From the NCBI GenBank assembly GCA_029262415.1, contig JAJCZL010000042.1:1-64000 (forward strand): a stretch of DNA of 64,000 nt, given 5' to 3'. The position numbers and the translations under genes were made by a program. The stretch comes from Deltaproteobacteria bacterium (GTDB lineage: Bacteria > Desulfobacterota > Binatia > UBA1149 > JAJCZL01). This document shows, piece after piece, positions 20,630-64,000 of the stretch (position 1 is its first letter; the number at the start of each line of letters is the position of its first letter). The notes under the pieces were generated by a model. The model saw only the letters and a program-made list of their open reading frames with translations. It searched no databases and was not told where the DNA came from.

Positions 20630-20934
20630 GTATCCAGGTCCGACGCCAAGACCGCGACAGAGGTTTGCTGTCTCGTGGCTGAGCCTACCGAGTAGGTCTC
20701 GGTCCCGGTTGCTTCGTGCCGCATCGTGAGCACCGACTCACAACCGCAGGCGAATTGTTGCACAAGTTTGGCCCCGGGTGTGCGCACATGGACGTCAAAA
20801 TCTTGACGCTCCTCATCCAAACCCAGTTGTTTCAGGTACTTATATAGACCCCCGAGGCTGGCAAACTGTTTGCTCTGTTGCTGGGCATTGTGGCGCGCAC
20901 AGCGTCGACGATGAATGGATGAGGGAGGATGCAG
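20630..20934. other. Intergenic region after the methylsuccinyl-CoA dehydrogenase gene
   Basis: 305 bp. Holds a short dyad ACCGAG-n5-CTCGGT at 20687-20703 and a wider inverted pair CGGTTG/CAACCG at 20706-20746, possibly a transcript end without a T tract. An antisense open frame crosses it but shows no family resemblance. The promoter for the regulatory operon downstream should lie near 20830-20920. Confidence 0.4.
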
Positions 20935-21300
20935 ATGAGTCAGTCGAGCGAAGCAACCATCTACGATTACTACCAGCCCCACGAGGAAGTGGTCACTGAG
21001 AAACGTAGGAAGACCGATGACAATCTCAAGTCGCTCGGTGCCGGCGACCCGGGGTTGGATGATGAGGCCATCCAGTGGACGCCTGAACTCACGCTGATGC
21101 TCGCGATCCTAGAAGACGCGATTGCTTGTTACCGTCGCGCACTGAAACGGCCGCGCCAAAACCCCGAGATCTTGGCTCGCCAGGCCGAGTTCTGGTTCAC
21201 GCTGGATGACTGGGATTCTCCTTTCTCGTTCAACAACATCTGTGAGGCACTAAATCTGGAGCCGGTCGCGACGCGCGAACGGATCATGCAAAACGATTGA
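20935..21300 (+). CDS. Conserved hypothetical protein of deltaproteobacterial type, 121 aa
   Basis: Start ATG 20935, with GGAGG 6 nt upstream (the ATG at 20929 would overlap the ribosome site). The N-terminal third is polar and probably disordered. The C-terminal part has LMLAILEDAIACYRR and then WFTLDDWDSPFSFNNICEALNLEPVATRERI. I recall similar 'WPFSFENICEVLGL' proteins as common in deltaproteobacteria, often near regulatory genes; the function is unknown, and the C-terminal helices could bind nucleic acid. It is followed 207 bp later by the two-component cluster, so it may be regulated separately. No signal peptide or membrane segment. Confidence 0.72.
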   Translation: MSQSSEATIYDYYQPHEEVVTEKRRKTDDNLKSLGAGDPGLDDEAIQWTPELTLMLAILEDAIACYRRALKRPRQNPEILARQAEFWFTLDDWDSPFSFNNICEALNLEPVATRERIMQND

Positions 21301-21507
21301 TTTCGATAGGTTAGGTGTGATTTCCCAAGCTGGAGCGACCTCCCGACGCGGAAGTGAAAAAATGAGGTTGATAATTCGCACCTCGGAGCGGTAGGGTAGT
21401 GCAGGAATGCAATTTCCTACTTGTCCGGCACTGCATCCGTTCCCGACTCTTGCATTAGCGCGAGACAAAGCGGTCGTGGTTCCGGCCCGGCAAGACCGAG
21501 GCAAACT

Positions 21508-21804
21508 GTGACCGACAACGTCCGCGAGCACTTCGAGCAAATTTTGGCGCGCTACCAAGCGCTTGATTCTAAGTTGGAATCCCTGGGCGGAATCGGCCAG
21601 TTACTGGGCTTCTTCGAAGGCGTTAAGCGCGATCTCAAAGCCGTTTCTTCGGAGGAGCTCGAGCGGATCTCTGCCGAGATCAAGACAGTTGTCGAGTCCC
21701 TACTAAAAGTCGATTACGAGCTGCGCAAGGTCCAGAACCTCAAGTTGTTATTCGAACAAACCGATCCCAGTTCAGGCCGGGGCGAGGGCGGCAAGGGCCA
21801 GTGA
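21508..21804 (+). CDS. Small helical protein preceding the kinase-like gene
   Basis: 98 residues from GTG 21508, with GAGG 6 nt upstream; the open frame back to 21421 has no such site. The chain is almost all helix, with heptad-like repeats (EHFEQILARYQALDSKLESLGG then KRDLKAVSSEELERISAEIKTVVESLLKVDYELRKVQNLKLLF), suggesting a coiled coil or four-helix partner. The stop overlaps the GTG of the histidine-kinase-like gene (GTGA), so translation is coupled. It may be a phosphotransfer or scaffolding partner, but it has no recognisable HPt His motif. Function unknown. Confidence 0.6.
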   Translation: MTDNVREHFEQILARYQALDSKLESLGGIGQLLGFFEGVKRDLKAVSSEELERISAEIKTVVESLLKVDYELRKVQNLKLLFEQTDPSSGRGEGGKGQ

Positions 21805-22484
21805 GCGCTCTCACGCCGCCCCGACCGGGCCAACGCCCGCCACCGGGCTCGGGCGACTACGAACCAGGTTTCGGCCTGCCCGACCAGGAAGTTCTCGCCG
21901 AGATCTCTCACGAACTCGGCAACTATTTCCATAAGCTCTATTACTGGACAGATTTCCTGAAGAGCCGCTGCGAGCCCGAATCCGATGAGATGGCATCGTG
22001 GCGGATGCTTGACGACAACGTCGAAGGGCTTGAGGCGTTCCTTAAGATGACGCTCGAGTACTTTGCGCCTGCCCGCCTGAGTTTCACCCGAATCCCGCTT
22101 GGGGATCTTTTGGACGGGGCCGAGAGCTACGTCCCTGGGAGGCGGGTTCACATCGAGGGGTTAGAGCACTGGCGCGGCACTGATGTGATGGCGGATCCGG
22201 CGCGATTTCACCACGTCATGCGGACGATATTCGAGCGCGTCGCAGAGTCGCTGTCGGGAGACGATGAATTGGTGATCCGGCTTCGACCGTCGTCTCGCGA
22301 TGAATTCGACGGGGTAGAGATCGAGTTCGTGGCCGGCCACGCCTACGAAGGACCCGGGTCTCTTGTCGGTGGAATCGCGATGTCTGTCGCGGAGAAATTC
22401 TTAAAAGTGCACGGCGGAGAGTTCTGCGAGCGGAATGATAACGAGAGCCGAGCGCTGACGATGTTCCTTCCTCTGTACGGTTGA
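21801..22484 (+). CDS. Histidine-kinase-like protein with degenerate ATP-binding domain
   Basis: 227 residues from GTG 21801. The helix VLAEISHELGNYFHKLYYWTDFLKS resembles a HisKA dimerisation helix with the phospho-acceptor H-E pair. The expected ATPase part is present in outline, ending GIAMSVAEKFLKVHGGEF and LTMFLPLYG as in HATPase_c. The N box (N-x3-NA) is replaced by RTIFERVAESL and the first glycine box is missing. No sensor or membrane segment is seen, so it is soluble. It may be a phosphatase/scaffold or a phosphotransfer protein for the response regulator 23 bp downstream, with another kinase supplying phosphate (inference). Confidence 0.68.
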   Translation: MSALTPPRPGQRPPPGSGDYEPGFGLPDQEVLAEISHELGNYFHKLYYWTDFLKSRCEPESDEMASWRMLDDNVEGLEAFLKMTLEYFAPARLSFTRIPLGDLLDGAESYVPGRRVHIEGLEHWRGTDVMADPARFHHVMRTIFERVAESLSGDDELVIRLRPSSRDEFDGVEIEFVAGHAYEGPGSLVGGIAMSVAEKFLKVHGGEFCERNDNESRALTMFLPLYG

Positions 22485-22507: not shown

Positions 22508-23890
22508 TTGATACATAGAATATTGGTCGTGGATGACGACCTGCTGATCTGCAAGCAGCTCGAGGATCTCTACAGAGACCGTAACTACGAAGTCGATACC
22601 TGTGGCGGCGCAGACGCCGCGATGGCTTTGCTCGAGGAGTTCGAGTACGCGCTTGCTGTAGTCGATCTCAAGATGCCGGGAACCGACGGCATCAGCTTGA
22701 CCAAAGAGATCCGCGAGCGTTGGCTCGATCTCGACGTCATCATCGTTACCGGGTATGCGTCGATCAAGGGTGCCGTAGAGGCGATTCGTCACGGCGCCAG
22801 CGACTACATTACTAAGCCTTTCGAGCGTGAAGAGATCCTCTTGGCGACCGAGAAGGTTCTCGAGAAGCGGCGGCTGCTCGACGAGATCAGCTACCTACGC
22901 GACCAACTCTCCGACCGCTATTCGTTTGCGAACATGGTTAGCCGCAATCGTGTCATGCATGACATCTTCGAAACAATTCAGTCGTTGGCACAGAACGATG
23001 CGACGGTGTTGATCTCAGGAGAGTCAGGGACCGGCAAGGAGTTGGTTGCGCGTGCTGTTCATTTTCAAGGGCGTCGCAGGGGGGGGCGGTTTGTCGCAAT
23101 CAACTGCGCGGCTTTCCCCGACTCTTTGCTTGAGAGTGAGCTGTTCGGTTTCGAACGTGGTGCGTTTACAGGTGCTGTCCACGACCGCGTCGGGAAGATC
23201 GAAGCCTCAAGCGGTGGCACGCTGTTTCTCGACGAAGTCGAGTCGATCTCACTGCCAATGCAGCTGAAACTCCTACGTGTGCTCGAACAACGTGAGATCG
23301 AGAAGCTCGGTGGCAACAAGGTGATCTCGGTCAACATGCGGATCATCACTGCAACCAACCGTGATCTCGAAAGTATGGTTGCCAGCGGCGAGATGCGTGA
23401 GGATTTCTTCTACCGAATCAATGTCGTGCCGATCAAACTGCCACCGCTTCGCGACAGAGTCGAGGATATTCCTCTGCTCGCGGGCGAAATGTTGCGCAAC
23501 AATACCATGGCGCGTGAGAACAACGTTACGCGGGTATCGAACAAAGCCCTTCAGCAATTGATGGGTTACCCGTGGCCCGGAAACATCCGCGAGCTCGGCA
23601 ACGTGATCGAGCGCGCAGTGTTGAAAACCACCGGAACCGTGGTTAGGGACGTCGATTTACCCAACCCCAGCGGCGGGGTTGGTCCCACCGCAGTGGGGCC
23701 CGCGGCGAAGCGCGACCTGGAACTCCCGCTCAAGGAGTACGTCAAGCGCGCAGAGCGCGACTATCTGGCTGCGCTGCTCAAACGTCACCAGGGGGGGATC
23801 TCTGCCTCGGCCGGCCACGCCATGATCGATGCTGCGACCCTCCATCGAAAGATGAAAAGCCACGGGCTCAAACGGGAAGATTTTCGCTAG
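22508..23890 (+). CDS. Sigma-54-dependent response regulator (NtrC family)
   Basis: 460 residues from TTG 22508; GAGG lies 6 nt upstream inside the same 11-base leader found before the 21508 gene. The receiver domain has Asp pair DD, phospho-acceptor D53 (VVDLKMPG) and K103. The AAA+ domain has Walker A GESGTGKE at 171-178, GAFTGA at 218-223 for sigma-54 contact, and FFYRINV/LPPLRDR. A Fis-type helix-turn-helix closes the protein (AERDYLAALLKRH...ATLHRKMKSHG). It should activate -24/-12 promoters, and one such promoter lies 277 bp after its stop in front of the EPS genes. The arrangement resembles the response regulators of PEP-CTERM-type EPS loci, though no exosortase is seen here. Confidence 0.93.
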   Translation: MIHRILVVDDDLLICKQLEDLYRDRNYEVDTCGGADAAMALLEEFEYALAVVDLKMPGTDGISLTKEIRERWLDLDVIIVTGYASIKGAVEAIRHGASDYITKPFEREEILLATEKVLEKRRLLDEISYLRDQLSDRYSFANMVSRNRVMHDIFETIQSLAQNDATVLISGESGTGKELVARAVHFQGRRRGGRFVAINCAAFPDSLLESELFGFERGAFTGAVHDRVGKIEASSGGTLFLDEVESISLPMQLKLLRVLEQREIEKLGGNKVISVNMRIITATNRDLESMVASGEMREDFFYRINVVPIKLPPLRDRVEDIPLLAGEMLRNNTMARENNVTRVSNKALQQLMGYPWPGNIRELGNVIERAVLKTTGTVVRDVDLPNPSGGVGPTAVGPAAKRDLELPLKEYVKRAERDYLAALLKRHQGGISASAGHAMIDAATLHRKMKSHGLKREDFR

Positions 23891-24119
23891 CTGCTGCGCA
23901 CGTCGACGGCCTCCTCAGGCACCACAGCCTCGCGCACAAAGTAGCCTCGGCCACCCTACGACTGGTTCTGCCCAGCACAACACCCAGGGCTCGCCCCGTG
24001 TCTCGCAAACATGCAATAAGCCTTCATTTTTGTTGGTCTTTCGTTGTTCTTAAGGGCACCGTGAGCGTACCGGGTACCACCCAATCGAGGGGGCCAAGCT
24101 GCTGGATTTGTGTCGCTTT

Positions 24120-24147
24120 CGCCGACCCCCCATGAGGCGGGTCGGCG
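24120..24147 (+). promoter_or_regulatory. 9-bp inverted repeat upstream of the sigma-54 promoter
   Basis: CGCCGACCC and its exact complement GGGTCGGCG are separated by 10 nt and lie about 20 bp upstream of the -24 element. It could be a terminator stem for the regulator operon (there is no T tract) or a regulator-binding dyad. Confidence 0.4.
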
Positions 24148-24166
24148 TATACGGTTGGAGTTCGAC

Positions 24167-24181
24167 TGGCACAGGCGTTGC
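24167..24181 (+). promoter_or_regulatory. Sigma-54 (-24/-12) promoter
   Basis: TGGCACAGGCGTTGC matches the RpoN consensus TGGCAC-N5-TTGC exactly, with GG and GC at the required spacing. It lies about 90 bp before the start of the AAA/LysM gene, and the gene just upstream encodes a sigma-54 activator. Confidence 0.82.
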
Positions 24182-24270
24182 TGATGTGCAGGTCGGAGCT
24201 TAAGGTCACCGATAGGGAGACCGCCCGTGCCTGCAAACGCAGGTATATGAGGCCCGCTTGGGAACACTGC

Positions 24271-26691
24271 ATGTACGCGAGTTTTTATAATCTCACCGAA
24301 AACCCCTTCAATCTGACACCCGACCCGAATTACCACTTCGTGAATGACTCCACGCGGGAGGCGCTCGCCTCTTTGCTGTACGGAATCGAGTCGCGCAAGG
24401 GTTTTCTTACCCTCGTAGGTGACGCGGGCACGGGCAAGACGACGCTCCTCAGACGCGTGTTCGAGACTATCGAGAACGACACCCGCGTAGTTTTCGTCTT
24501 TAACCCAGGCGTAACCTTCGATGAGCTACTAGAGTTCATCTGTATCGAACTCGGAATACGCACAGACAGTTTCCGACGTCTGCACCTCCTCGACCGACTC
24601 AATCAGTATCTGCTCGAACAATTGACCGCAGGCTACAACGTCGTCGTCATGATCGACGAGGCCCAAACTCTCGAGGACAAGGTTCTCGAAGAGTTGCGGC
24701 TCTTGTCGAATCTTGAGACCTCGAAGGAGAAGATTCTCCAGATCATCCTTTCGGGCCAACCCGAGCTCGAAGATAAGTTGCGCAAGCCGAGCATGCGCCA
24801 GCTCCGGCAGCGGATCGGCGCGCGCGCGTCGCTGCAGCCGATGAAGCAAAACGAGATCGGCCCGTACATCGAAACGCGTCTGCGAAGCGCCGGGTCTGAA
24901 GAAGGTCAGCTGTTTACCGCGCCTGCTCTTCGTAAGATTTGGTTGGCATCCAAGGGGATTCCACGCATCGTCAATGTGATTTGTGACAACGCGTTGGTCA
25001 TCGGTTTCGCAAAGAGCGAGCGGCGCGTCTCGACAGCGACGGTCAAAGAGGCGATCGGTGATCTAGCGGGCGCGGATCCGGGCGGTGGCGAACTCGACCT
25101 TGTCCGGCTGTGGCTCGGGCGGCCCACCGTGCGCTATTTGGGTGCGGCAACTGCGGCGCTCGCCGTAGGTGTGCCGTTTGCCCTCTCGTTGATGTTTAAC
25201 GGCGCCCAGCCGCCGCGGAGCGCACCGGACACCTTTAGCGGCCGCGCCGGATACGGCGCACGGGTTGAGGTGTCTGATCCAGGAATCGCTCCGGTCATTG
25301 TTCCGTCCGTCATCGATGCAACTCGCGACGAAGGCGTTTCGCCGGCAACTGTTGCGGTGATGGAAGCAGAGGATCTCAGCAGCACTGGCGGGTTCGGTAG
25401 TGTCAAAACGATCGCAGCGGTTGCCGCAGACGAGGGTACGCCGCGTGGGTCCGAAGCAATACCCGTGGCGGCGGTGATCCCCTTGGAGTCTACCGGCGCG
25501 ATTGCGGCGCCCGCTTCGGAGATGCTTCCCAAGCTCGCCCCGCACAATACCGTGGTTGCCGACAGCATTAGAAGGGCCGAAGTATTGGCGCGTTCTGCTG
25601 CCGCAAGGCTTTACGAGAACGGAAACCGCGTGTTGTCAGGTGACGGTGTACCCGCTCCCGAGCGGCGAGTCGGCCCAACTGTGACCAGGGCTGTGCCGCA
25701 AGCTGCATCTGCACCTGCGGCTGTGGTGAAGCCGGTTGCGGCGGCCAAGATCGAGGTTGCGCAATCGGTGGTGCCGCGGGCAACCGAGCCTGCGGCCCGG
25801 CGGGTGACGACGCCTGTTGCTCCACCTGCGCCCGAGCCCGTCCAAGTTGCGAAAGCGATCGCAAAGCCGACGCCGCGGGTAAGCGAGCCTGCGGCCCGGC
25901 GGGTGACGACGCCTGTTGCTCCACCTGCGCCCGAGCCCGTCCAAGTTGTGAAAGCGATCGCAAAGCCGACGCCGCGGGTAACCGAGCCTGCGGCCCGGCG
26001 GGTGACGACGCCTGTTGCTCCGCGTGCACCCGAGCCCGTCCAAGTTGCGAAGGCGATCGCAAAGCCGGCGCCGCGGCCGTCACCTGTCGCGAAGCCTGCA
26101 CCAGCGAAGCGCACACTGAAGGAGACCGCTTCGATTAAGCGTGAGTCGGCTCCGGCACGTAGCGGAATCGTCGGGCTCTCAGCTGGCCAGCCACCGATGG
26201 GTCGTCTGGTCCGTGTTCGCAAGAACGACACAATCTGGAAGATCGCATCGCGGTACTACCCCGATGCTGGTGCGGCGACGGTGGAAGCTTTGTTGGCGCG
26301 CAACCCTGCGCTGAAGAACGCCGGGCCTTTGTACGAAGATCAACTCTTGCTGTTACCGTTCCTTACGGCGCAGGAAATGGTCGTCGCAGGCTCTGACGGC
26401 TCCTACCGAGTTCTGCTGTCGAAAGCGCCGAGCAGCTCGCATACCGACGCCGCGATGGGATGGGTCGGGTCAACGATGCCGAAGATGAGTGTGCAGTCGA
26501 TGCAGCCGCGCAGGCTTGGCGACCCCTACGAACTCTATGCGGTCGGTTTCATCAGCCGCAACGACGCTCTGGCCGCGGCTGACTACGTTCTCTTCAAGCT
26601 CGCCGAACTTCAAGCAGGGGTAAAGAGTAGGCGGGCTGGTTCCGAGCCGAGGGCCCGTTATGTGACAACCCCTCAGTCAACCACCCATTAG
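24271..26691 (+). CDS. ExeA-like AAA ATPase with membrane segment, Ala/Pro repeats and LysM domain
   Basis: 806 residues from ATG 24271 (MYASFYNLTENPFNLTPDP, the classic ExeA/GspA start). Walker A GDAGTGKTT is at 50-58, Walker B VVVMIDEA at 124-131, then sensor LSGQPELEDKL. A single transmembrane segment lies at about 287-310. After it, an Ala/Pro/Val-rich region carries three 33-residue repeats, then a LysM domain (VRVRKNDTIWKIASRYYP) at about 643-698 and a SPOR-like tail. The ATPase would be cytoplasmic and LysM periplasmic, binding peptidoglycan. In EPS loci such ATPases accompany Wza/Wzc genes and may help exporter insertion through the wall (inference). First gene after the sigma-54 promoter. 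Confidence 0.85.
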   Translation: MYASFYNLTENPFNLTPDPNYHFVNDSTREALASLLYGIESRKGFLTLVGDAGTGKTTLLRRVFETIENDTRVVFVFNPGVTFDELLEFICIELGIRTDSFRRLHLLDRLNQYLLEQLTAGYNVVVMIDEAQTLEDKVLEELRLLSNLETSKEKILQIILSGQPELEDKLRKPSMRQLRQRIGARASLQPMKQNEIGPYIETRLRSAGSEEGQLFTAPALRKIWLASKGIPRIVNVICDNALVIGFAKSERRVSTATVKEAIGDLAGADPGGGELDLVRLWLGRPTVRYLGAATAALAVGVPFALSLMFNGAQPPRSAPDTFSGRAGYGARVEVSDPGIAPVIVPSVIDATRDEGVSPATVAVMEAEDLSSTGGFGSVKTIAAVAADEGTPRGSEAIPVAAVIPLESTGAIAAPASEMLPKLAPHNTVVADSIRRAEVLARSAAARLYENGNRVLSGDGVPAPERRVGPTVTRAVPQAASAPAAVVKPVAAAKIEVAQSVVPRATEPAARRVTTPVAPPAPEPVQVAKAIAKPTPRVSEPAARRVTTPVAPPAPEPVQVVKAIAKPTPRVTEPAARRVTTPVAPRAPEPVQVAKAIAKPAPRPSPVAKPAPAKRTLKETASIKRESAPARSGIVGLSAGQPPMGRLVRVRKNDTIWKIASRYYPDAGAATVEALLARNPALKNAGPLYEDQLLLLPFLTAQEMVVAGSDGSYRVLLSKAPSSSHTDAAMGWVGSTMPKMSVQSMQPRRLGDPYELYAVGFISRNDALAAADYVLFKLAELQAGVKSRRAGSEPRARYVTTPQSTTH
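25786..26082 (+). repeat. Three tandem 99-bp repeats (33-aa Ala/Pro/Val unit)
   Basis: Copies start at 25786, 25885 and 25984. They begin EPAARRVTTPVAPPAPEPVQ and are nearly identical in DNA; the last is diverged at its end. They form the periplasmic spacer of the AAA/LysM protein. Confidence 0.9.
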
Positions 26692-27056
26692 GGGCGGAAT
26701 TCCTGGACTTGACCATTCCCGAACCCCCCGTGCGGGGCGACCCGGAATTGTGCAGTCCAGAGGCCGCAAGGGTGCGAGTTTTCAGCTGAATATGTATAAC
26801 CTGTGCGTAAATAGAGAGGCCTGCAATGATGCGGCGCATGGCAAGAATACGGGAATTTGCACTTGTTCGTGCGTGAAGGCTTTTTGTTCAGGCTACAAGG
26901 CCATATTCTCATGCTGATGTCTTCCCCGCCCGGGGACCGGAAAGGCGGTCTCGGTGGCGTGGTCCGCAGGCCAGTTGCGGGTGAGGGCTCCCCCCGAGTT
27001 GCGGGGTGTTACATGGCAACCGACTTATGAGTAGGCAGTTCCAAACCGGACAAAAG
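26692..27056. other. Intergenic region upstream of the Wza-like gene, with structured element
   Basis: 365 bp. A nested inverted repeat at 26704-26759 pairs TGGACT/AGTCCA, ATTCC/GGAAT and CCCC/GGGG around a short loop. Downstream sequence is AT-richer near 26780-26900, then G-rich to the start. Antisense frames here look spurious. It probably contains a transcript end or attenuator plus a promoter for the export genes; no consensus promoter is clear. Confidence 0.45.
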
Positions 27057-27779
27057 ATGCGCGAGCAGATCACCTTATTGTGCGCAGTTTGTGCGTTGGC
27101 GATGTTGGCGGGCTGCGCGTCGCGATCGACCGTTCCGCCTTACCAGCCGAGCGCCGCGCCGCCCCCACGGGTAGTCTCGCCCGGCACCCCGATGCCCTAC
27201 TACCAGGTTCAAGACGGCGATGAGGTGGAGGTGAGGTTCGCTTTCCACGAAACTTTGAACACTACCACCGTCGTTCGTCCCGACGGCCGCGTTACCGTGC
27301 CCGGCCTCGGCGACTTTTACGCACTCGGCCTTACTACTGACCAGCTAGAGGCCGATATCTACGGCCGCGCGTCGATCACGCACCGCGATCCGACGGTCTC
27401 AGTCACTGTGACCCATTCGCTTGAGAGGCGTGCGTACGTCGGAGGCGAGGTCGGGCGTCCGGGTTATGTTGCTCTACGTTCCGGGTTAACCACGCTTCGC
27501 GCGATCACGGAGCGTGGCGGGTTCATCCTCAGTTCGGAGAAACGCAAAGTAGTTGTGATCAAGTGGGCCGAGGATGGCACGTATGCCGCGACCCAGCTCG
27601 ATCTGCGCGAGGTCCTCGAAACCGGCGACTCGACTCAGGACTTGGCTCTGGAACCGAACGACATGGTCTACGTACCGCCCACCGGGATCGCCAACGCCAC
27701 GAGTTGGGTCCAACAGTACATCACCGACCTTCTTCCCGTGCGCGCGCCGACGCTGCGCGGCCCGGATGTGGGGAGGTAA
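27057..27779 (+). CDS. Wza-like polysaccharide export lipoprotein
   Basis: 240 residues from ATG 27057, chosen because it gives a compact lipoprotein signal ending LAGC (Cys20); starts at 27006 or 27027 are possible. The Poly_export/SLBB part reads YYQVQDGDEVEVRFAFHETLNTTTVVRPDGRVTVPGLGDFYALGLT, then ITHRDPTVSVTVT and RRAYVGGEVGRPGYVALRSGLTTLRAI. It should form the outer-membrane export channel. At about 240 residues it is shorter than E. coli Wza and resembles the simplified exporters of EPS loci. It is followed 18 bp later by the co-polymerase gene. Confidence 0.9.
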   Translation: MREQITLLCAVCALAMLAGCASRSTVPPYQPSAAPPPRVVSPGTPMPYYQVQDGDEVEVRFAFHETLNTTTVVRPDGRVTVPGLGDFYALGLTTDQLEADIYGRASITHRDPTVSVTVTHSLERRAYVGGEVGRPGYVALRSGLTTLRAITERGGFILSSEKRKVVVIKWAEDGTYAATQLDLREVLETGDSTQDLALEPNDMVYVPPTGIANATSWVQQYITDLLPVRAPTLRGPDVGR

Positions 27780-63735: not shown

Positions 63736-64000
63736 ATAGTTGTCCAGCGGGTGCGAATCCCGCCCGGCCAAGGCACCAGCTCAGCCAGCCGGTAGCGAGC
63801 TTTGCAGTTCTGGAGGTAACTCCAGCGTTGATGCGTAAGTACGCGAACAGGTGAGCCGTGGATATTAGCCTCGAAACAACGTCATTCCAGTTGCCCAAGG
63901 GGTCATGCACCCTGAAGGCCATGATTTCTCCCGCGCAAAAATGAGCGAGTGGGCGAAATGGCTGGCGGGGTGTTGCGCCACGGCGCGTCTGAACAGGACA
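63682..64000 (+). mobile_element. Possible group II intron, 5' part, truncated by the window end
   Basis: From GTGCATGG at 63682 the sequence is rich in short stems, in the style of group II intron domain I: GGCGGG-type pair CAGCGGGTGCGAATCCCGCC, TGGAGG/AACTCCAG near 63812, and GCGTAAGTACGCGAACAGG. It has no coding frame, starts with GTGC (group II introns start GUGYG) and lies inside a signal-peptide gene. The ORF-encoding part and domain V would be beyond 64000. Assigned by resemblance only. Confidence 0.4.

What the first reader, a model, noticed from the sequence alone, without database searches (positions are those of the whole stretch)
24120..24271. Near-perfect sigma-54 promoter driving the EPS locus, with an upstream dyad
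TGGCACAGGCGTTGC matches the -24/-12 consensus exactly. It lies 277 bp after the gene for a sigma-54 activator and about 90 bp before the AAA/LysM gene. A 9-bp inverted repeat sits just upstream. This links the regulator to polysaccharide export.
Basis: partly seen in the sequence, partly recalled or inferred. Interest (0 to 1): 0.58.

Follow-up and report, generated by a model that had tools for sequence, protein, structure and literature searches.

The report
Conserved sigma-54 promoter before polysaccharide-export gene
A textbook on/off switch that needs the special sigma factor RpoN sits in front of a gene for secreting sugar polymers, next to the gene of its likely activator; several related bacteria keep it, and comparing them suggests a different activator docking site from the one first proposed.

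Summary
Confirmed. TGGCACAGGCGTTGCT at 24167-24182 is an exact -24/-12 site, the only one in the window (0.05 expected). It lies 277 bp after a GAFTGA response regulator (RR) and 88 bp before a TIGR03015-like AAA/LysM gene. The genome has one rpoN and 16 exact sites against 3 for the reversed pattern. The site is kept at 10 of 10 positions in 5 of 13 genomes of the order, in otherwise poorly conserved DNA.

The upstream dyad (24120-24147) exists, but its sequence is not kept in relatives. A better enhancer candidate is TTGCA-N4-TGCAA at 24003-24016: matches lie 149-150 bp before the -24 element in all five genomes, 164-165 bp before another sigma-54 site in four, and also before the regulator genes. 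Of 16 exact sites only this one has it.

In five sister genomes site and enhancer are gone and a sigma-70-like promoter stands instead.

Verdict: a real, conserved RpoN-type promoter for an export-cluster gene, probably activated by the adjacent RR. New member of a known kind; binding and start site untested.

The parts
24167..24182 (+). sigma-54 promoter TGGCACAGGCGTTGCT (-24 GG at 24168-24169, -12 GC at 24180-24181); predicted start about 24193
   Evidence: exact consensus; 10 of 10 in four other order genomes and in G037; invariant blocks in a 3-way alignment
24003..24016 (+). candidate enhancer of the RR, TCGCAAACATGCAA (9 of 10 to TTGCA-N4-TGCAA)
   Evidence: same motif 149-150 bp before the -24 element in 5 of 5 order genomes with the site; only 1 of 16 exact sigma-54 sites of the genome has it
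   Evidence: 12-nt arms, 11 of 12 paired; sequence not conserved; no T-run
24080..24093 (.). C-tract/G-tract dyad CCCAATCGAGGGGG, one of a set before ATPase and export-gene promoters
   Evidence: pattern chosen after seeing the sequences
24271..26691 (+). AAA ATPase/LysM protein, TIGR03015-like, first gene behind the promoter
   Evidence: 264.1 bits to TIGR03015, under its cut-off 324.5; AAA_22 and LysM
22508..23890 (+). response regulator with sigma-54 AAA+ domain and GAFTGA, probable activator
   Evidence: adjacent to the ATPase gene in relatives
21801..22484 (+). 227-aa sensor-less histidine-kinase-core-like protein
   Evidence: model pLDDT 82.8; best solved match ZraS, Z 16.3, rmsd 3.5, 206 aligned
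21421..21804 (+). small gene B of the regulator cluster, unknown family
21399..21412 (+). second enhancer-like dyad GTGCAGGAATGCAA before the B-kinase-RR genes
   Evidence: 9 of 10; also in G001; 1-3 copies before the regulator genes in G002, G004, G006, G008
20859..20874 (+). second sigma-54-type site TGGCAAACTGTTTGCT before gene A
   Evidence: site of 9 or more of 11 near the start of gene A in 12 of 12 loci with that gene; background 6%
20929..21300 (+). gene A, 123 aa, unknown family, conserved ahead of the regulators
27006..27779 (+). polysaccharide export protein, next gene after a 314-bp gap
   Evidence: Poly_export and SLBB; TIGR03027 99 bits, under its cut-off 180

Best explanation
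24167-24182 is a working sigma-54 promoter. RNA polymerase with RpoN waits there in a closed complex. The response regulator encoded just upstream, once phosphorylated, binds the dyad TTGCA-N4-TGCAA at 24003-24016, loops over 150 bp and uses its GAFTGA AAA+ ring to open the complex. Transcription starts near 24193 and makes the AAA/LysM export-cluster gene, perhaps with read-through into the export operon. A second copy of the dyad before the regulator genes suggests that the regulator also controls its own genes. Shown by sequence: the site, its conservation, the enhancer-like motif and its fixed spacing, one rpoN. Inferred: that this RR binds that motif, phosphorylation, looping, start site and direction of effect.
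For: Exact site against 0.05 expected; 16 exact sites in the genome against 3 reversed; one rpoN; GAFTGA and sigma-54 AAA+ domain in the RR. Site kept in own, G001, G004, G006, G008 and in G037 of another order. Enhancer motif: 25 of 27 hits in promoter zones covering 10.6% of 398 kb, next best permuted half-site 6 of 36; gap 149-150 bp in 5 of 5 and 164-165 in 4 of 4; both exact copies of G004 and of G006, and two of three of G008, lie in this locus; 1 of 16 exact sigma-54 sites of this genome has it. Held-out family f9: sigma-54 sites in the same cluster in 6 of 6, related dyads at 71-72 and 150-152 bp. RR-ATPase gene order conserved.
Against: Motif and sigma-54 site are absent at this gene in 8 of 13 order genomes (f2, f3), although the RR is there. 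G037 has the sigma-54 site but not the motif. In own, G001, G002 and G003 all exact copies of the motif lie elsewhere, mostly inside frames. The motif was found by eye after looking; alone in the window it is weak, 4 hits against 1.25. Own B-kinase-RR genes have the motif but no good sigma-54 site next to it (best 6 of 11). No binding or transcript data.
Confidence: 0.75

Rival explanations
1. The promoter is sigma-54 dependent, but another activator of the genome (for instance NtrC) works it; the neighbouring RR controls other genes.
For: RR kept without the site in 8 of 13 order genomes; G037 has the site without the motif.
Against: RR and promoter are adjacent in all genomes that have the site; the motif also stands before the RR's own genes and before no other exact sigma-54 site of the genome.
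Confidence: 0.15
2. The first reader's dyad (24120-24147) is the RR's binding site and acts close to the promoter.
For: A real dyad just upstream; other dyads at about the same place in G001 and f4; C-tract/G-tract dyads before 5 of 5 ATPase and 4 of 4 export-gene sigma-54 promoters of the order.
Against: Letters not shared between orthologues although the RR's DNA-reading helix is nearly the same; 20 bp from the -24 element is close for an enhancer (recalled rule).
Confidence: 0.1
3. The dyad is an RNA hairpin that ends or slows transcripts from the regulator genes, insulating the sigma-54 promoter.
For: Structure kept better than sequence; -22.1 kcal/mol, z -2.1; f4 z -3.4.
Against: No T-run, not listed as terminator; G001 z -0.85.
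Confidence: 0.35
4. The site is a chance match in GC-rich DNA.
For: Some exact matches of the genome lie inside genes, such as L001 in an aspartokinase-like frame.
Against: Kept in other genomes at a constant distance from the enhancer-like dyad.
Confidence: 0.03

Closest known systems
PrsK/PrsR-controlled sigma-54 promoters of the PEP-CTERM/exosortase system (Haft et al. 2006, PMC1569441; passages and section 7 read)
   Same: NtrC-type RR with Fis-type HTH, sigma-54 motif with an upstream regulator motif, near exopolysaccharide genes; related ATPase and export families
   Different: Their motif 1 is 17 nt ending TTTACA about 63 nt before the sigma-54 motif and stands before PEP-CTERM genes; here TTGCA-N4-TGCAA at 150 bp before an ATPase gene. 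RR, kinase and exosortase score under the curated cut-offs.
RpoN1-dependent pepA of Aquincola tertiaricarbonis (PMC9850573; passages read)
   Same: mapped start behind TGGCAC/CTGCTT, PrsK/PrsR locus involved in floc formation
   Different: target is a PEP-CTERM protein; EPS genes themselves reported as not RpoN1-regulated
EPS/biofilm sigma-54 regulons of Desulfovibrio vulgaris, DVU0110 and DVUA0057 (PMC4641369; passages read)
   Same: two-component EBPs with GAFTGA controlling EPS/biofilm operons through UAS and sigma-54 sites; regulators next to their promoters
   Different: other lineage; no TTGCA or TGCA string found in the main text, logos not seen
sigma-54 as controller of the bacterial exterior (Francke et al. 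2011, PMC3162934; abstract read)
   Same: links sigma-54 promoters with exopolysaccharide genes in general
   Different: general survey, not this locus
ZraS/ZraR two-component system
   Same: the kinase-like protein's predicted fold matches the ZraS core best, and its neighbour RR is of the same sigma-54 type
   Different: no sensor part, no recognisable ATP boxes

Membership tests
sigma-54 (RpoN) promoter | TGGCAC-N5-TTGC with GG and GC 10 bp apart | tested here: met
   exact
sigma-54 (RpoN) promoter | rpoN in the genome | tested here: met
   one match to PF04552, 212.2 bits
sigma-54 (RpoN) promoter | conserved enhancer upstream for an EBP | tested here: met
   as a motif; binding not tested
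sigma-54 (RpoN) promoter | transcript start about 12 bp after GC, RpoN and EBP dependent | not testable with these tools
   needs RNA and mutants
sigma-54 activator (EBP) | sigma-54 AAA+ domain with GAFTGA loop, receiver domain | tested here: met
   PF00158 225.7 bits, PF00072 95.1 bits; GAFTGA in the translation
PrsR (TIGR02915) | curated score | tested here: not met
   368.7 bits against 502.6
PEP-CTERM/exosortase system | EpsH exosortase (TIGR02602) | tested here: not met
   20.6 bits against 105.55 in the genome
PEP-CTERM/exosortase system | PrsK kinase (TIGR02916) | tested here: not met
   best 125.5 bits against 300
Active sensor histidine kinase (21801-22484) | DHp-CA fold | tested here: met
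   predicted model, ZraS Z 16.3
Active sensor histidine kinase (21801-22484) | phosphorylatable His and ATP-binding boxes | tested here: inconclusive
   His37 invariant in 14 sequences; ATP boxes not recognised by Pfam or by eye

The most novel reading that the evidence does not exclude
A self-regulated sigma-54 circuit in an unnamed lineage: a GAFTGA regulator with its own enhancer motif (TTGCA-N4-TGCAA) and a sensor-less, possibly ATP-blind kinase core controls polysaccharide export from a fixed 150-bp enhancer distance, and a sister clade has rewired the same gene to a sigma-70-type promoter while losing motif and site and changing one residue (S/A/L to Q) at the end of the regulator's DNA-reading helix. 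That would be a natural case of promoter-class switching with a matching change in the activator.
Probability: 0.35. Interest if true: 0.52.

Novelty: new member of a known kind. Interest (0 to 1): 0.38.

Why it matters
It gives an unnamed lineage a concrete, testable wiring for making extracellular polysaccharide, with a predicted start site, enhancer and activator. The comparison across the order shows where the wiring is kept and where the promoter class appears to have changed, which can be tested with reporters in a laboratory host. For sigma-54 biology at large it is one more case of control of the cell exterior, a theme already published.

Tried and rejected
Chance match: rejected. The dyad as an intrinsic terminator with T-run: not listed by the scan. 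PEP-CTERM/exosortase membership: not met. K-mer enrichment before the gene A and the ATPase/export promoters gave nothing clearly above shuffles; the enhancer motif came from reading the sequences, then scanning. Sigma-54-like sites within one mismatch in the window: of 8, only 20859 and 24167 lie between genes; the other six lie in long ORFs. Two other TIGR03015-like loci and the weak exosortase-like locus of this genome: no sigma-54 site of 10 or more of 11. Off-locus exact copies of the enhancer motif (12 places in 5 genomes): most lie inside open frames; a sigma-54-like site within 400 bp downstream in 2 of 12 (L180, 10 of 11; L183, 9 of 11). A TGTACG-like element seen by eye before gene A in sister genomes was not pursued. 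The fold search for the kinase-like protein lists ordinary kinase cores; no ChpT-type phosphotransferase is among the rows shown.

Rows dropped: the ATPase rows of G003 and G005 fell out by my filter (best match was the C-terminal part); one search covers both (L022, L025), with no site of 8 or more of 10. In one search a second count keeps one of the three near-identical f4 genomes (16 of 18).

Full report
What was checked. The window is part of contig C42 of a 3.91-Mb, 83-contig genome, 96.8% complete. TGGCACAGGCGTTGCT lies at 24167-24182, 277 bp after the stop of the RR gene and 88 bp before the ATG of the AAA/LysM gene. With GC as -13/-12 the start would be about 24193, giving a leader of about 78 nt. 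It is the only exact site in the window (0.05 expected). Genome-wide there are 16 exact sites and 3 for the pattern read backwards. Reading the downstream frames by eye, several stand shortly before frames that look like Flp pilins (two), GlnB/GlnA, a prepilin peptidase and multihaem cytochromes; one (L001) is inside an aspartokinase-like frame. These names are mine from the translations, not from a family search. One rpoN was found.

Conservation of the promoter. The ATPase has close relatives (64-74% identity) in all 12 other genomes of the order (the order has 13 genomes here). Of the 30 loci read, six have a site with 10 of 10 consensus positions upstream: own, G001 (same family, f1), G004, G006, G008 (family f4) and G037 (another order). 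The other eight order genomes (G002 of f2, seven of f3) have none. On an 11-position score the five order genomes have 11 of 11 and G037 10 of 11; 390-bp windows of reversed sequence reach 10 in 0.4% and 11 in none of 4200. A three-way alignment of own, G001 and G008 shows TGGCAC and GTTGCT invariant in an otherwise poorly conserved intergenic region.

More sigma-54 sites. Near the start of gene A, a 123-aa protein of unknown family ahead of the regulator genes, a site of 9 or more of 11 stands in 12 of 12 loci in which tblastn found that gene (own: TGGCAAACTGTTTGCT at 20859); 6% of background windows reach 9. In G011 it falls 29 bp inside the estimated start, which was extrapolated. In f4 (3 of 3) and G002 a further site of 10-11 of 11 stands before the export-protein gene; in this genome it does not (best 6).

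The enhancer. Reading the stretches before these promoters suggested a dyad with GCAA halves. A first form, taken from the ATPase and export-gene promoters, was scanned over 21 loci (20 fetched, plus 20 kb of the window) and turned up also before genes B and RR. The refined form TTGCA-N4-TGCAA gives 27 hits with 9 or 10 of 10 in 398 kb; 25 of them lie in promoter zones that make up 10.6% of the bases, while the best of the other 59 permuted half-sites has 6 such hits out of 36. Keeping one f4 genome, 16 of 18. The gap to the -24 element is 150, 150, 150, 149, 149 bp at the ATPase gene (own, G001, G004, G006, G008) and 164, 165, 165, 165 at the export gene (G004, G006, G008, G002). In G004 and G006 both exact copies in the genome lie in this locus, in G008 two of three; own, G001, G002 and G003 have 3, 2, 4 and 2 exact copies, all elsewhere, mostly inside frames. 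Alone in the 64-kb window the motif is not striking: 4 hits at one mismatch against 1.25. Among the 16 exact sigma-54 sites of the genome, only this one has the motif (8 or more of 10) within 60-280 bp upstream.

Held-out family. Six genomes of family f9, outside the order, were then examined. A sigma-54 site of 11 of 11 stands before the B-kinase-RR genes in 5 of 6 (not found in G049), with GTGCA-N4-TGCA(T/C) 71-72 bp before it at 8 of 10 in G023, G029 and G042, 7 of 10 in G036 and no clear match in G017. Another site of 10-11 of 11 stands after the ATPase gene in 6 of 6, before a frame that looks like NusG/RfaH to my eye, with a conserved block ending GCA-N4-CGCAA at 150-152 bp (7 of 10 in five; 6 of 10 in G017 by hand count). 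G017 and G042 had been seen before in part. This agrees with the motif and with the 150-bp spacing but is weaker than in the order, and the six genomes are not independent.

It is real, but the window holds four of that quality against 0-3 in shuffles, and its letters differ in G001 and f4, where other dyads sit at about the same place. It belongs to a set of C-tract/G-tract dyads before 5 of 5 order ATPase promoters and 4 of 4 export-gene promoters with sigma-54 sites, and before 0 of 12 gene A promoters, 0 of 3 gene B promoters and not in G037, a pattern I chose after seeing the sequences. Folded as RNA it gives -22.1 kcal/mol, z -2.1; f4 z -3.4; G001 z -0.85. No T-run follows. Its role stays open: insulation, a second protein's site, or none.

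Loss in the sister family. Five f3 genomes (G003, G005, G007, G009, G010) lack site and motif here; all five have TTGGGW-N17-GATAAV before the ATPase gene, which resembles a sigma-70 promoter (consensus recalled). Their RR reads MKQHG near the C-terminus where motif-bearing ones have MKSHG, MKAHG or MKLHA. This is a lead from few genomes of one clade, no proof of rewiring; G037 (KAHG, no motif) does not follow it.

Regulator and kinase. The RR has receiver and sigma-54 AAA+ domains and GAFTGA. It scores under the PrsR cut-off. Next to it stands a 227-aa protein without family hits, with His37 and Asn41 invariant in 14 relatives and a predicted fold matching kinase cores, best ZraS, Z 16.3. It has no sensor part and no ATP boxes that I could recognise; f4 has no tblastn match to it. 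How the RR is switched on is unknown.

Literature. Haft et al. 2006 (passages and section 7) described a regulator motif plus sigma-54 motif before PEP-CTERM genes, with PrsR as activator; RpoN-dependent pepA was mapped in Aquincola (passages); the D. vulgaris study links two EBPs to EPS/biofilm operons and notes regulators next to their promoters (passages); Francke et al. 2011 (abstract) make the general point. In four library searches (listings) I saw no paper on this locus or motif; subscription journals are mostly not held.

Verdict. Ordinary in kind, well supported by comparison, untested at the bench.

Noticed in passing
20859-20874 and 20929-21300: Sigma-54-type site before gene A, a 123-aa protein of no known family that is conserved ahead of the regulator genes across the order; a TGTACG-like element precedes it in sister genomes.
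   Followed up: partly
63754-63979: Group II intron D1-D4-6 hit, 117 bits, at the end of the window.
   Followed up: no
25740-26080: The AAA/LysM gene holds near-identical tandem repeats in its Pro/Ala-rich linker (seen).
   Followed up: no
L002 and L003 (G000:C1:64494 and 64998): Two neighbouring Flp-pilin-like frames with nearly the same sequence each have an exact sigma-54 site 68 bp upstream.
   Followed up: no
L142, L143, L166, L167, L170, L171: In family f9 a NusG/RfaH-looking frame behind the ATPase gene has its own sigma-54 site with a conserved block 150-152 bp upstream in 6 of 6: an antiterminator may be under the same regulator.
   Followed up: partly
26924-26935 and 26990-27006: A pair of C-tract/G-tract dyads also precedes the export-protein gene of this genome, without a sigma-54 site.
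   Followed up: partly
21801-22484: Sensor-less kinase-core-like protein with an invariant His but no recognisable ATP boxes beside the RR; f4 genomes have no match to it.
   Followed up: partly
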